Source of the DNA: JBDRGX01 sp043817485 [NCBI: bacterium]
Lineage (GTDB): Bacteria; JBDRGX01
DNA: 5,053 nucleotides
Assembly (NCBI GenBank): GCA_043817485.1
Contig: JBDRGX010000119.1
Coordinates: 1 to 5,053 of the forward strand
Direction: 5' to 3'
The notes below the pieces were generated by a model, which was not told the origin of the DNA, searched no databases, and saw only the letters and a program-made list of their open reading frames with translations. This document shows positions 1,398 through 4,801 of the stretch, piece after piece. Made by a program: the position numbers and the translations under genes. Numbering within the stretch: position 1 is the first letter of the stretch; every line of letters starts with the position of its first letter.

Positions 1398-1832
1398 TTA
1401 TTCTTTCCAAATTCCTATTTTATTTTTTTTTGCTAAATCTTCATATTTTTGCCATTCAGATATATCAAAATGACAAGGTTGAATATTTGAAATTTTTGCA
1501 TATCCATAACGAAGCATTTGAATATTTATATTTGTATCTTTTAAATAAACTATACATCTTGTTCGATTATAAGCATCTCTTGGTCTTACTGGACAAATTT
1601 CTAAATCAATCTTTTTATTTAAAACTAAGTTTTTAAGAAAATCTGTAGCTTCTTGATAGTATTTTTGATTTTTTTCTGGAGCATCTATTCCTATAAACCT
1701 TATTATTATTTCTTCTGTTTCAATAGTATCTCCATCTATTACTTTAATACAAAGATGACCTGTTTCTTTTTTGCAAGCAATAATATTAAAAAGAAAAAAA
1801 ATAAGCAAAAAATAAAATATTTGCCTTTTCAA
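1398..1832 (-). CDS. Thermonuclease-family (SNase-like) lipoprotein, TTG start
   Basis: This is a 144-aa secreted, probably membrane-anchored nuclease. The in-frame ATG at 1919 lies deep inside trkH, so I choose the TTG at 1832. It has AGGAG 5 nt upstream (1842-1838) and makes a clean lipoprotein signal: K2, R3, a hydrophobic run I5-I18, then the lipobox I-I-A-C with C20 as the lipidated cysteine. The mature part is a staphylococcal-nuclease OB fold. It has DGDT (33-36, with the Ca2+-ligand aspartates), R45 and D50-A-P-E53 in RFIGIDAPE, and R90 in DAYNR. These match R35, D40, E43 and R87 of the Staphylococcus enzyme, so all catalytic residues are present. Predicted role is Ca2+-dependent cleavage of DNA or RNA outside the cytoplasmic membrane, perhaps for nucleotide scavenging. 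It starts 8 nt after trkH and its ribosome site overlaps the trkH stop, so it is the last gene of the operon. Free C80, C93 and C120 are present in the exported domain. Confidence 0.87.
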   Translation of the reverse strand: MKRQIFYFLLIFFLFNIIACKKETGHLCIKVIDGDTIETEEIIIRFIGIDAPEKNQKYYQEATDFLKNLVLNKKIDLEICPVRPRDAYNRTRCIVYLKDTNINIQMLRYGYAKISNIQPCHFDISEWQKYEDLAKKNKIGIWKE

Positions 1833-1837
1833 AAATA

Positions 1838-1842
1838 CTCCT
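1838..1842 (-). promoter_or_regulatory. Ribosome binding site that decides the TTG start of the nuclease
   Basis: AGGAG on the minus strand sits 5 nt before the TTG and shares bases with the trkH stop codon (TAGGAG). No ATG lies at a suitable distance in that frame. Together with the lipoprotein signal this fixes the start and implies coupling to trkH translation. Confidence 0.8.
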
Positions 1843-3343
1843 ATTTTTTTCCTTTTATAAGTGCAACAAAAAAGCCGATAAAAGCAAAGATAGAAACAAA
1901 TTCTAATCTTCCAGCCCACATTTCAAAAATATAAATTATTTTAAGTAGACAAGGCATAGAAGGAGTAGTAATTCCACAAGAAAGACCAACATTAGCAGCA
2001 GCAGAGGTTGATTCAAACAAAGAATCAATAAAAGAATAGTTATAAAACATACCTACGATCGTGCCTAAAAAATAAATTATAAAATAGCAAAAAGTAATTA
2101 ATAAAGCATTTTTTGCCATAGCATCATCTAATATTAAATTTTTAATATGATGAATTTTGGAAATAAAAATACTCATATCTGATGAAATGGTTGTTTTTAT
2201 TTGTTGATAAAAAACTTTTAAAATTATACCAATTCTTAATGTTTTAATACCGCCTGTAGTAGAACAAGCACAACCACCAATACCCATTGCTATAATTAAA
2301 CCATAAGTAGCTAATTGTGTCCAGTTTTTTGAAAACTGCGTAGCATAAAGTGTTCCATATCCAGTTCCAGTATGAGCAGAAATAAGATGAAAAAATCCTT
2401 TTCTAAATAAAATTAAGGTATTATTATAATCAGCCATTTTAATTAAGCCGATTAAAGTAATAAAAAAAGTAAAAAATATAGTCATAACAAATATTTTTAT
2501 TTCTATATTTTTATAAATTTCTTTTTTTGTTCCATTCCAAACAACATAATGAAGTGCAAAATTTATAGCACCAGTAAGCATTGTAACAATAATTATTACC
2601 TCAGCCCAAAAATTGTGATAAAATAAAATATTTTGAGATTGAGGACCAAATCCACCAGTATCCCATCCAGCCATAGCAATCCAAATACTATGGAATAAAG
2701 ATAAATCCCATTTTAATCCACCTTTACAAAAACTTATCCATAAAAAAATGCTTGATAACGCTACATAAAAAATACTTACAATCCAAATAAATTTTGCTGT
2801 TCCGAGAATATTAGGAAGAATTTTTTCTTCTCTTGCTTCTCCGATATACATTCCAAGAGCACCCGTTGTTTTTCCTATGACCAAAAGAACACCAATTACT
2901 ATTCCTTGTCCACCAATAAACATTATAAAATGACGCCACATATTATGTCCCATTGCTAAATGATCAAGGTCGCAAGCCAAACTAAGACCAGTTGTGGCAA
3001 ATCCACTCATTGTTTCAAAACACGCATCTAAATAAGAATAAAAATGATTACTAAAAAATAAGGGAATTGCAGATAAAAACATAGCAACTAACCAAGATAA
3101 TGAAGTAATTATTAAAGCATTTTTAAAAAGTAATTTTTTTTTTGTATAACACAAAAAGTTTACAATAAAAGCAAGAGATAAAGAAAAAAATATTCCGATA
3201 AGATAATCTAAACATGGATTCCATTCTTTATAAATAATAGAAACAAAAAAAGGAACTATCATAGCAATAGCAATGCCAATCATTATTTTGGAAAGATAAA
3301 AACCAATAATTTTAATATCATTTAATGTGGGTCTTAGTATCAT
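1841..3343 (-). CDS. trkH: Trk-type K+ uptake system, membrane pore subunit TrkH
   Basis: This 500-aa integral membrane protein forms the K+ pathway across the cytoplasmic membrane. Its length is close to that of known TrkH. It shows the four pseudo-repeated membrane-pore-membrane units, each with a selectivity-filter glycine: FETMSGFATTGLS (109-121, G119), AGWDTGGFG (225-233), SAHTGTGYGT (322-331) and AAANVGLS (448-455, G453). The intramembrane loop in the third repeat is recognisable as GIGGCACSTTGGIKTLR (354-370), and a family-typical GRLE motif (478-481) lies near the C-terminus. The first ~95 residues add two extra helices, as in TrkH rather than the shorter KtrB. The ATG overlaps the stop of the 42-aa gene upstream (ATGA). 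It has no good ribosome site of its own, so translation is probably coupled. The stop overlaps the ribosome site of the nuclease gene. No broken or missing filter element is seen. Confidence 0.96.
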   Translation of the reverse strand: MILRPTLNDIKIIGFYLSKIMIGIAIAMIVPFFVSIIYKEWNPCLDYLIGIFFSLSLAFIVNFLCYTKKKLLFKNALIITSLSWLVAMFLSAIPLFFSNHFYSYLDACFETMSGFATTGLSLACDLDHLAMGHNMWRHFIMFIGGQGIVIGVLLVIGKTTGALGMYIGEAREEKILPNILGTAKFIWIVSIFYVALSSIFLWISFCKGGLKWDLSLFHSIWIAMAGWDTGGFGPQSQNILFYHNFWAEVIIIVTMLTGAINFALHYVVWNGTKKEIYKNIEIKIFVMTIFFTFFITLIGLIKMADYNNTLILFRKGFFHLISAHTGTGYGTLYATQFSKNWTQLATYGLIIAMGIGGCACSTTGGIKTLRIGIILKVFYQQIKTTISSDMSIFISKIHHIKNLILDDAMAKNALLITFCYFIIYFLGTIVGMFYNYSFIDSLFESTSAAANVGLSCGITTPSMPCLLKIIYIFEMWAGRLEFVSIFAFIGFFVALIKGKK

Positions 3344-3468
3344 TTTGACAACTTTAAAACAATAAAAATAAGAATTAAAGAACCAATAATTATAAAAGCA
3401 TTAAAACTTAATTCGGTTAAAAATCCTAAAATAAAATTTTTAAATTGTTTTTGCTTTGAAATTTTCAT
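3340..3468 (-). CDS. 42-aa single-membrane-segment protein of the trk operon (unrecognised)
   Basis: This small gene fills the gap between trkA and trkH and belongs to no family I recognise. Its ATG at 3468 overlaps the trkA stop (TAATG) and its TGA overlaps the trkH start (ATGA), so it uses the gap with no spare bases. A ribosome site, AGGA (from AGGAAAAATATAATG), lies 8 nt upstream inside the end of trkA. The N-terminus is basic (K2, K5, K7, K10), followed by a short hydrophobic patch FILGFL (12-17), E19, and one strong hydrophobic segment from about F22 to L38 that ends with K39 and K42. This predicts a single-pass inner-membrane peptide. By position it could stabilise TrkH or adjust ring-pore coupling, as KdpF does for the unrelated Kdp system; that role is inference. 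The alternative is a leader that only couples trkA and trkH translation. Confidence 0.72.
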   Translation of the reverse strand: MKISKQKQFKNFILGFLTELSFNAFIIIGSLILIFIVLKLSK

Positions 3469-4130
3469 TATATTTTTCCTATTAGAGCTTTTAATAATTC
3501 TTTTTCTGTTTCTATTTTAGTAAGAGCAATAATATCATCTCCAACTTCTAAAAAAGTATTTCCCTTAGGAATAATAATATTGTTGTCTCTTAAAATAGAA
3601 ACAATTACTGAATTTTCTGGAATTTCAATTTCTTTAATTTGTTTATTTATTACGGGAGAGGTATCACTTAAATCAACTCTAACTATGGTTAAATTTCCTC
3701 GTTTAAAAGTCATTAAATTGACAATATCGTCAAAAGAAACTTCTTCTTCTATTATTTTTGAAATCAATAAAGTGCTATTGATGCAAACATCAACACCTAA
3801 TTTATAAAAAATTTGTTCTTTTTGTGGATCATTTACTTTAGTTACAGTTCGAGCTATTTTAAAATTTTCTTTGGATAATTGTGAAATAATTAAGTTATCT
3901 TCATCAGAACTGGTTACAGATGCAATAACATCTGCATTTTCAATACCAGCTTCTATTAAGCATTTTGGATTACATCCATCTCCTTGAATTACTACCATAT
4001 CTAATTCTTCAACTATTTGACGACAAATAAAAGCATTTTTTTCTATTAAAACAACTGTATGCTTGCTTTGTAAAAGTTTTTTTGCTAAATAAAAACCAAC
4101 ATTTCCACCACCTACAATGATGATATGCAT
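3468..4130 (-). CDS. trkA: TrkA K+ uptake regulatory subunit, RCK_N plus RCK_C
   Basis: This 220-aa cytoplasmic regulator binds a nucleotide and gates TrkH as part of a ring. Residues 1-~130 are an RCK_N Rossmann domain. They show GGGNVG with G7, G9 and G12, E30 at the end of strand beta-2 for ribose contact, QGDG (49-52), and the T-S-S-D-E-D-N stretch (73-79). Residues ~135-220 are an RCK_C domain, with the conserved D-D-I (199-200 region), a GNTFLEVGDD turn and a hydrophobic core. The length equals a half-size KtrA-type protein, not the ~458-aa tandem TrkA of E. coli. The ATG at 4130 overlaps the upstream stop (TAATG), with AAAGGAG just before it. The stop overlaps the start of the 42-aa gene. 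A hetero-oligomeric ring with the upstream 134-aa protein is likely. Confidence 0.93.
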   Translation of the reverse strand: MHIIIVGGGNVGFYLAKKLLQSKHTVVLIEKNAFICRQIVEELDMVVIQGDGCNPKCLIEAGIENADVIASVTSSDEDNLIISQLSKENFKIARTVTKVNDPQKEQIFYKLGVDVCINSTLLISKIIEEEVSFDDIVNLMTFKRGNLTIVRVDLSDTSPVINKQIKEIEIPENSVIVSILRDNNIIIPKGNTFLEVGDDIIALTKIETEKELLKALIGKI

Positions 4131-4534
4131 TATTCTCCTTTCTGCAAAATTTTATTTTTAAGTAAATTAGCAATCAAAGAAATTCCTATAGTTTCAATAT
4201 TAGATTGTTTGCAAAAATCTTCTTTATTAGATTCAGAAATTTTAGCAATAACTCTTGGAACATGATAAATTTTTTTAGCTATTTGTGATGTAATTATGTT
4301 AATATTATCATTATTAGTTAAAGCAATGAAAATATTAGCATTATCAATGTTAGCTTCTTTTAAAACACTTTCATTAAATCCATCTCCAATAATAGTTATT
4401 CCATTAAATTCTTTATCAAGTTTATTAAAAGCATTTTTGTTTTTGTCTATAATGACTATATCATTTCCTTCATAAGCTAAAAAAGTAGCAACTTTAGCTC
4501 CTAATTGACTACATCCTATGATTATAATATACAT
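4130..4534 (-). CDS. TrkA-N (RCK_N) single-domain protein, first gene of the trk operon
   Basis: This 134-aa cytoplasmic protein has only the RCK_N nucleotide-binding domain and no RCK_C. The Rossmann motif is G7-C-S9-Q-L-G12, so the middle glycine of GxGxxG is serine. D30 ends strand beta-2, and GDG (50-52) and L-T-N-N-D-N-I-N (72-79) match its 220-aa neighbour. The ATG at 4534 has AGGAG 5 nt upstream (4544-4540), the best ribosome site of the set. The stop overlaps the trkA start. A two-subunit TrkA ring from paired genes is known in Thermotoga maritima (TM1088A/TM1088B, from memory). This gene plausibly fills the same role, alternating with the larger subunit beneath TrkH. It is not obviously truncated: the domain is complete and translation runs cleanly into trkA. 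The serine may alter nucleotide preference. Confidence 0.9.
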   Translation of the reverse strand: MYIIIIGCSQLGAKVATFLAYEGNDIVIIDKNKNAFNKLDKEFNGITIIGDGFNESVLKEANIDNANIFIALTNNDNINIITSQIAKKIYHVPRVIAKISESNKEDFCKQSNIETIGISLIANLLKNKILQKGE

Positions 4535-4637: not shown

Positions 4638-4801
4638 AATTGAAAATTGAAAATGAAAAATGGAATTTACTCTGGTGTTTTTTCTTCCTGGTGTTCTGGT
4701 GACTGATGCTCTTTCTTTCTGGTGACTGGTGTTCTGGTGACTGGTGACTGGTTAATTGTCAAAGACTATAATTTTCCATTTCTCATTTCCCATTTCCAAT
4801 T
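4638..4801. repeat. 31-nt imperfect inverted repeat flanking a CTGGTG tract
   Basis: The left arm 4638-4668 and the reverse complement of 4771-4801 agree at 25 of 31 positions by hand alignment. In a minus-strand (trk-sense) transcript three of the six differences become G-U pairs, so 28 of 31 positions could pair. In a plus-strand transcript they would be A-C clashes. The enclosed ~100 nt is the CTGGTG tract. It may be a miniature mobile element or a structured leader. Confidence 0.6.
4671..4753. repeat. Imperfect tandem repeat, CTGGTGA / CTGGTGTT units
   Basis: CTGGTG occurs at 4672, 4688, 4696, 4719, 4726, 4734 and 4741, with a final CTGGTT at 4748. Spacing is mainly 7 or 8 bases, interrupted by T/C-rich stretches (4678-4687 and 4710-4718). 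Mixed 7/8 spacing argues against a coding repeat. It sits exactly between the two inverted arms. Confidence 0.75.

What the first reader, a model, noticed from the sequence alone, without database searches (positions are those of the whole stretch)
3340..3468. Overlooked 42-aa membrane peptide gene locked between trkA and trkH
Seen: an ATG-to-TGA frame of 42 codons exactly fills the gap. It overlaps trkA as TAATG and trkH as ATGA, has its own AGGA site, and encodes a basic N-terminus plus one hydrophobic segment. Known: small hydrophobic subunits accompany some K+ transporters (KdpF in Kdp), but I know of none standard for TrkH. Inferred: a small accessory subunit or a translational coupler. 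Below 50 aa it would be missed by most gene callers.
Basis: partly seen in the sequence, partly recalled or inferred. Interest (0 to 1): 0.8.

Follow-up and report, generated by a model that had tools for sequence, protein, structure and literature searches.

The report
Small unnamed gene beside trkH
Between two potassium-uptake genes lies a real but unnamed gene for a 42-residue, single-helix membrane protein; relatives of it accompany one branch of the TrkH potassium channel in two bacterial phyla, so this branch probably has an extra subunit.

Summary
In detail: a 42-codon ATG-TGA frame (minus strand, 3468..3340) fills the trkA-trkH gap, overlapping both genes, with AGGA 8 nt upstream. It is a conserved gene. 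At 125 of 132 junctions examined, nearly all Omnitrophota, there is a 25-52 aa frame with one hydrophobic segment; 123 have a GxxxE motif. Pooled dN/dS over 29 disjoint pairs of relatives is 0.27. A profile finds it in 128 of 134 Omnitrophota genomes with this TrkH type, in 0 of 25 with only a distant TrkH and in 0 of 225 without a TrkH match; 133 of 137 hits lie directly before trkH. It also occurs in Actinomycetota, and it stays with trkH copies that have no trkA nearby. No Pfam or NCBIfam family fits, and it is not KdpF. Likeliest reading: a single-helix accessory subunit of one TrkH clade, packed through a face with G15 and E19. Binding is inferred, not shown: covariation gave no signal, and several trkH operons of the clade lack the gene. 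Relatives (58 of 60), but not the window, carry a second unnamed exported-protein gene right after trkH.

The parts
3340..3468 (-). 42-aa single-helix membrane peptide gene; family motif GxxxE = G15 (3426-3424) and E19 (3414-3412)
   Evidence: selection measured on relatives
3477..3480 (-). AGGA ribosome-binding-like site, 8 nt before the ATG, inside the trkA tail
   Evidence: sequence
1841..3343 (-). trkH, 500 aa, of the clade that carries the peptide
   Evidence: (PF02386, 1.7e-40)
3468..4130 (-). trkA, 220 aa, TrkA_N plus TrkA_C; like TM1088B of Thermotoga maritima
4130..4534 (-). short trkA, 134 aa, TrkA_N only; like TM1088A

Best explanation
The gene encodes a dedicated single-helix membrane subunit of one clade of TrkH K+ channels. 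Shown: relatives are protein-coding, conserved in two phyla and tied to that trkH clade. Inferred: it sits with its basic N-terminus in the cytoplasm, crosses the membrane once, and packs against TrkH through one helix face (G15, E19, F22, I26, S30, L33 in the window), with E19 making a buried polar contact near the cytoplasmic side. By analogy with KdpF in the Kdp pump it would stabilise or tune TrkH, whose gating TrkA controls. The start-stop overlaps would couple its translation to that of trkA and trkH and balance the subunits.
For: Coding: pooled dN/dS 0.27, pN below pS in 28 of 29 disjoint pairs; pN/pS 0.37 in the true frame against 0.81 and 1.25 in the other two. Motif: G15, I16 and E19 in at least 90% of 117 rows (the window itself has Phe at 16); in 50 rows of two phyla the Gly is invariant and the Glu at least 90%. 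Tied to this TrkH: 128 of 134 genomes with close TrkH have it, 0 of 25 with distant TrkH only, 0 of 225 without a TrkH match at 1e-30; 133 of 137 profile hits lie within 200 nt upstream of a TrkH match on the same strand. Of 20 loci with a distant TrkH, 19 have a readable junction and trkA upstream, and none has a family member. Tied to TrkH rather than TrkA: of six trkH copies that follow a KdpD/KdpE-like pair and have no trkA hit in the fetched stretch, five keep it (L082, L084, L085, L089, and L096 without the Glu); L080 lacks it. Shape: one helix; N side more positive than C side in 121 of 145 rows, the reverse in 4; conservation periodic at 100 degrees per residue with 0, 4, 7, 11, 15 and 18 on one side and 87% Ala/Gly/Ser at +15. 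On the TrkH tree it is spread over the deep branches of the clade.
Against: No direct evidence of a complex. Covariation of peptide with TrkH (148 pairs, about 111 effective) did not exceed shuffled pairing. Without the motif positions the helical periodicity is not significant (p = 0.11). Some trkH operons of the clade lack the frame: L087 and L093 (trkA and trkH overlap directly), L080, and in the actinobacterial set L165, L166, L168, L169, L174, L176 and L180, so TrkH can do without it. A hydrophobic frame without the motif stands at 14 actinobacterial junctions and at L096, L107 (Ala for Gly, no ATG or GTG start) and L201. The passages read on the Vibrio TrkH-TrkA structures mention no such subunit (PMC6987127). 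Selection was measured on relatives only: the window's peptide has no close relative.
Confidence: 0.74

Rival explanations
1. Translational coupler only: the frame exists to carry ribosomes from trkA into trkH and set their ratio; the peptide itself does nothing.
For: Four-base ATGA overlap with trkH at 70 of 125 junctions. The window's trkH start has a weak ribosome site.
Against: Gly and Glu conserved in two phyla, dN/dS 0.27, gaps of up to 121 nt before trkH in some relatives, and presence before trkH copies with no trkA nearby.
Confidence: 0.06
2. Membrane anchor or regulator of TrkA (the gating ring) rather than a TrkH subunit.
For: It lies directly after trkA in most operons examined.
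Against: It persists before trkH copies with no trkA in the fetched stretch. trkA-trkH pairs of other clades do without it: Cetobacterium (trkA-trkA-trkH, last two overlapping by 4 bases) and 19 control junctions. A TrkA encoded elsewhere in those genomes was not excluded.
Confidence: 0.12
3. A free small membrane protein with its own role, merely co-transcribed with trkH.
For: Many microproteins have one helix; there are no interaction data here.
Against: Of 137 profile hits in 384 Omnitrophota genomes, 133 lie directly before trkH and two more at contig ends of genomes whose trkH contig breaks there; the remaining two have E of 0.003 and 0.009.
Confidence: 0.08

Closest known systems
KdpF (Pfam PF09604), small subunit of the KdpFABC K+ pump
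   Same: About 30 aa, one transmembrane helix, encoded in a K+-transport operon with a pore protein of the SKT superfamily (KdpA; that TrkH belongs to the same superfamily is recalled). KdpF is described as a single helix that stabilises the complex (PMC8385062, passages).
   Different: PF09604 is not among the families hit by any of 117 members at E 0.1. Profile comparison with ten actinobacterial KdpF sequences: probability 0.9%. KdpF's invariant YL and usual terminal PExF are absent here, and the GxxxE is absent from those ten. Next to trkH, not kdpA.
Two-subunit TrkA ring TM1088A/TM1088B with TrkH TM1089 of Thermotoga maritima
   Same: The window has the same kind of pair, a short TrkA_N protein and a TrkA with N and C domains (PMC4380455, passages).
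   Different: The passages read name no small third protein; whether one lies in that operon could not be tested here.
TrkH-TrkA of Vibrio parahaemolyticus (4J9U, 6V4J-L)
   Same: Homologues of the window's TrkH and TrkA.
   Different: A distant TrkH; the passages read mention TrkH and TrkA only (PMC6987127).

Membership tests
KdpF (PF09604) | Match to the Pfam model | tested here: not met
   (117 members, E up to 0.1); hhalign probability 0.9%
KdpF (PF09604) | Central YL and usual terminal P-E-x-F | tested here: not met
KdpF (PF09604) | Gene beside kdpA | tested here: not met
   beside trkH
KdpF (PF09604) | One transmembrane helix | tested here: met
   model; hydrophobicity
Trk K+ uptake system | TrkH pore protein in the operon | tested here: met
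   PF02386 E 1.7e-40
Trk K+ uptake system | TrkA with N and C domains in the operon | tested here: met
   PF02254 and PF02080
Subunit of the Trk complex | Physical association with TrkH | not testable with these tools
   covariation gave no signal

The most novel reading that the evidence does not exclude
One old clade of TrkH channels, in Omnitrophota and Actinomycetota at least, is an expanded complex: TrkA ring, TrkH pore, a GxxxE single-helix subunit encoded ahead of trkH, and an exported, membrane-anchored second partner encoded just after trkH (fused to a TrkH in a Coriobacteriia genome). The helix subunit would gate or assemble the pore through its intramembrane glutamate.
Probability: 0.45. 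Interest if true: 0.75.

Novelty: new variant of a known kind. Interest (0 to 1): 0.62.

Why it matters
Trk is treated as a two-part system, TrkH and TrkA. A third conserved membrane subunit would change how gating and assembly of this clade are read, and would give TrkH a counterpart to KdpF. The protein is tiny, has a clear motif and can be tested directly in K+-uptake-deficient laboratory E. coli.

Tried and rejected
KdpF homology: rejected. Known family: only scattered weak single- or few-member hits in Pfam, NCBIfam and PHROGs, and nothing significant among PDB sequences (the window's peptide alone hits phrog_27903, unknown function, at E 0.0025, and no other of 50 members does). RNA element: no Rfam match at gathering score.

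Docking site by covariation: no signal above shuffled pairing. Compensation: the two peptide-less TrkHs L087 and L093 have Glu at TrkH position 28 in the first helix, where 158 of 180 rows have Met, which looked like a transferred glutamate; but L073 has the same Glu together with the peptide, and the other peptide-less rows do not have it. The family of G115 holds only these two genomes. Left as a curiosity.

Viral contigs: no hit. Phages: 20 records with TrkH below 60% identity; ten listed, none opened. Plasmids: 26 records, the listed ones at 24-31% identity; two opened. Literature (open-licence PMC library only); no small subunit of TrkH in the listings or in the passages read.

Script and reading faults: the tree (built, whose script then stopped with an error) contains a row L201 that is by mistake a copy of L189 and must be ignored; the change count of 11 includes it and the contig-end cases L024 and L127, so it is too high. 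L172's chosen frame is the tail of a preceding trkH. In one search the window row lost its Met; one search replaces it. L224 holds no DNA upstream of trkH and tests nothing at the junction.

Full report
The window and the feature. The window is AT-rich and no whole genome is held for it. Its TrkH finds four loci in the genome collection, three Omnitrophota at 52-54% identity and one Coriobacteriia at 33%; on the TrkH tree the window is the first branch of the Omnitrophota-type rows (support 81 and 67). On the minus strand run a short trkA (4534-4130), trkA (4130-3468), the 42-codon frame (3468-3340) and trkH (3343-1841), each overlapping the next by one to four bases.

Is it a gene? TrkH was searched in 384 Omnitrophota genomes (the phylum of G001, the genome of L001); 159 have a match at E <= 1e-30, and 134 of these have a close TrkH. 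I analysed 132 junctions: the window, the four loci and 127 of the 128 loci L010-L137 (L131 dropped, its TrkH start not aligned; L005-L009 dropped, as L005-L007 repeat L001-L003 and L008-L009 come from the genome of L004). L004 is from Coriobacteriia and L137 has a distant TrkH. At 126 of 132 a frame of 25 or more codons with a hydrophobic stretch lies at the junction; 125 of these (25-52 aa) were taken as the family, the exception being L004. Choice by hydrophobicity alone gave the same frame at 125 of 125. GxxxE is present in 123 of 125; L096 has Ile for the Glu and L107 Ala for the Gly, with no ATG or GTG start in its frame. The six junctions without a hydrophobic frame are L024, L080, L087, L093, L127 and L137. 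For L024 and L127 the contig breaks at repeats just before trkH, and the peptide sits at the end of another contig of the same genome. L087 and L093 are real absences, trkA and trkH overlapping directly.

Selection. Over 29 disjoint pairs of relatives pS is 0.48 and pN 0.18, dN/dS 0.27, with pN below pS in 28 of 29. Read in the other two frames the same DNA gives pN/pS of 0.81 and 1.25, against 0.37 in the true frame. The glutamate is written GAA 65 times and GAG 58 times (all). The window is in no pair, having no close relative.

Distribution. A profile of 117 members gives 137 hits in 128 of 384 Omnitrophota genomes at E <= 0.01. All 128 are among the 134 with close TrkH; none of the 25 with only a distant TrkH and none of the 225 without a TrkH match at 1e-30 has it. 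Of the 137 hits, 133 lie within 200 nt upstream of a TrkH match on the same strand; two (G378, G178) are the contig-end cases; two weak ones (E 0.003 and 0.009) lie elsewhere in longer frames. The six genomes missed are G115 and G133 (real absence), G278 and G293 (TrkH begins at the contig edge), G184 (the TrkH match starts at residue 118 only about 115 nt after trkA, so the peptide and the TrkH start are missing together, by deletion or misassembly) and G317, whose junction has a hydrophobic frame without the motif.

In the phylum of G004, which I take to be Actinomycetota, 78 of 198 genomes have a TrkH at E <= 1e-20. A two-phylum profile hits 28 of 198 at E <= 0.01; one of these, G574, only at 0.009, and G501 has a second hit inside a 336-aa frame. 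Of 49 loci analysed (L140-L189 without L167, whose TrkH start is missing), 27 have the motif frame, 14 a hydrophobic frame without the motif, one (L172) a false choice, and 7 none. In a 50-row alignment of both phyla the Gly is invariant and the Glu at least 90%. Twenty loci with a distant TrkH were read as controls (19 from the phylum of G004, one Omnitrophota); L224 holds no upstream DNA. At the other 19, all with trkA upstream, there is no family member; one (L218) has an unrelated weakly hydrophobic frame. On the TrkH tree the peptide is spread over the deep branches of the clade with scattered absences, which I read as one origin and several losses (row L201 is faulty).

What it works with. 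Six Omnitrophota trkH copies (L080, L082, L084, L085, L089, L096) have no trkA hit in the fetched stretch and follow two genes that look like the KdpD-KdpE sensor pair; these names rest on my reading of the sequences, as no family search was run on them. Five of the six keep the peptide frame, L096 without the Glu. This favours TrkH over TrkA as partner. A TrkA elsewhere in those genomes was not excluded.

Shape. AlphaFold2 gives one helix, residues 4-41, mean pLDDT 88.7, from four sequences. The N side of the motif is more positive than the C side in 121 of 145 rows and less in 4, which by the positive-inside rule (recalled) puts the N-terminus in the cytoplasm. Conservation along 22 positions peaks at 100 degrees per residue, with 0, 4, 7, 11, 15 and 18 on one side and 87% small residues at 15; without the motif positions this is only a trend (p = 0.11). 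That is what a helix packed on a partner looks like. Covariation with TrkH (148 pairs) gave nothing beyond shuffled pairing, so the docking site is unknown.

Comparison. No Pfam, NCBIfam, PHROGs or PDB sequence family covers it beyond scattered weak hits. KdpF works in a similar setting but is not the same family. The window's two trkA genes match the two-subunit TrkA ring of Thermotoga maritima. Searches of an open-licence literature library showed no small subunit of TrkH.

A second partner. At 58 of 60 relatives checked a further unnamed protein gene follows trkH directly, overlapping it by four bases in 37. By eye it has a signal-like start, an OB-like domain and a C-terminal helix. It has no Pfam hit in the two members scanned and only a very weak NCBIfam hit to lysine-tRNA ligase in one. 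In L004 a TrkH reads on into such a domain in one 731-aa frame. The window gives no hit to it and has a staphylococcal-nuclease-like gene there instead.

Verdict. A real, conserved microprotein gene and a probable third subunit of one TrkH clade. Coding in relatives and linkage to TrkH are shown; binding, topology and effect are inferred.

Noticed in passing
L001 5497-5997; L003 2436-2939: A second unnamed conserved gene directly after trkH at 58 of 60 relatives: exported, with a C-terminal helix and an OB-like domain by eye; no Pfam match in the two scanned. No hit in the window.
   Followed up: partly
L004 1600-3795: A Coriobacteriia TrkH reads on into the downstream-protein domain as one 731-aa frame, a natural fusion that suggests contact.
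   Followed up: partly
window 1398-1919, minus strand: A staphylococcal-nuclease-like gene (PF00565) with a lipoprotein-like start stands where relatives have the OB-like gene; that its fold is also an OB fold is recalled.
   Followed up: no
L080, L082, L084, L085, L089, L096, upstream of trkH: trkH copies without trkA in the fetched stretch follow a sensor kinase and a response regulator that look like KdpD and KdpE, which suggests K+-limitation control of a second trkH.
   Followed up: partly
L024 with L194; L127 with L195: Repeats between the peptide gene and trkH coincide with contig breaks in G378 and G178.
   Followed up: partly
TrkH residue 28 in L087, L093 and L073: Glu in the first TrkH helix where 158 of 180 rows have Met; two of the three cases, sister genomes, lack the peptide.
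   Followed up: partly
L237 (G184:C2): The start of trkH (about 117 codons) and the peptide gene are missing together after an intact trkA; deletion or misassembly.
   Followed up: partly
window 4130-4534, minus strand: The first trkA is only 134 aa, without the C domain, whereas the corresponding gene of L001 has 214 aa; resembles TM1088A.
   Followed up: no
window 4717-4752: Short tandem array with unit CTGGTGA upstream of the operon.
   Followed up: no
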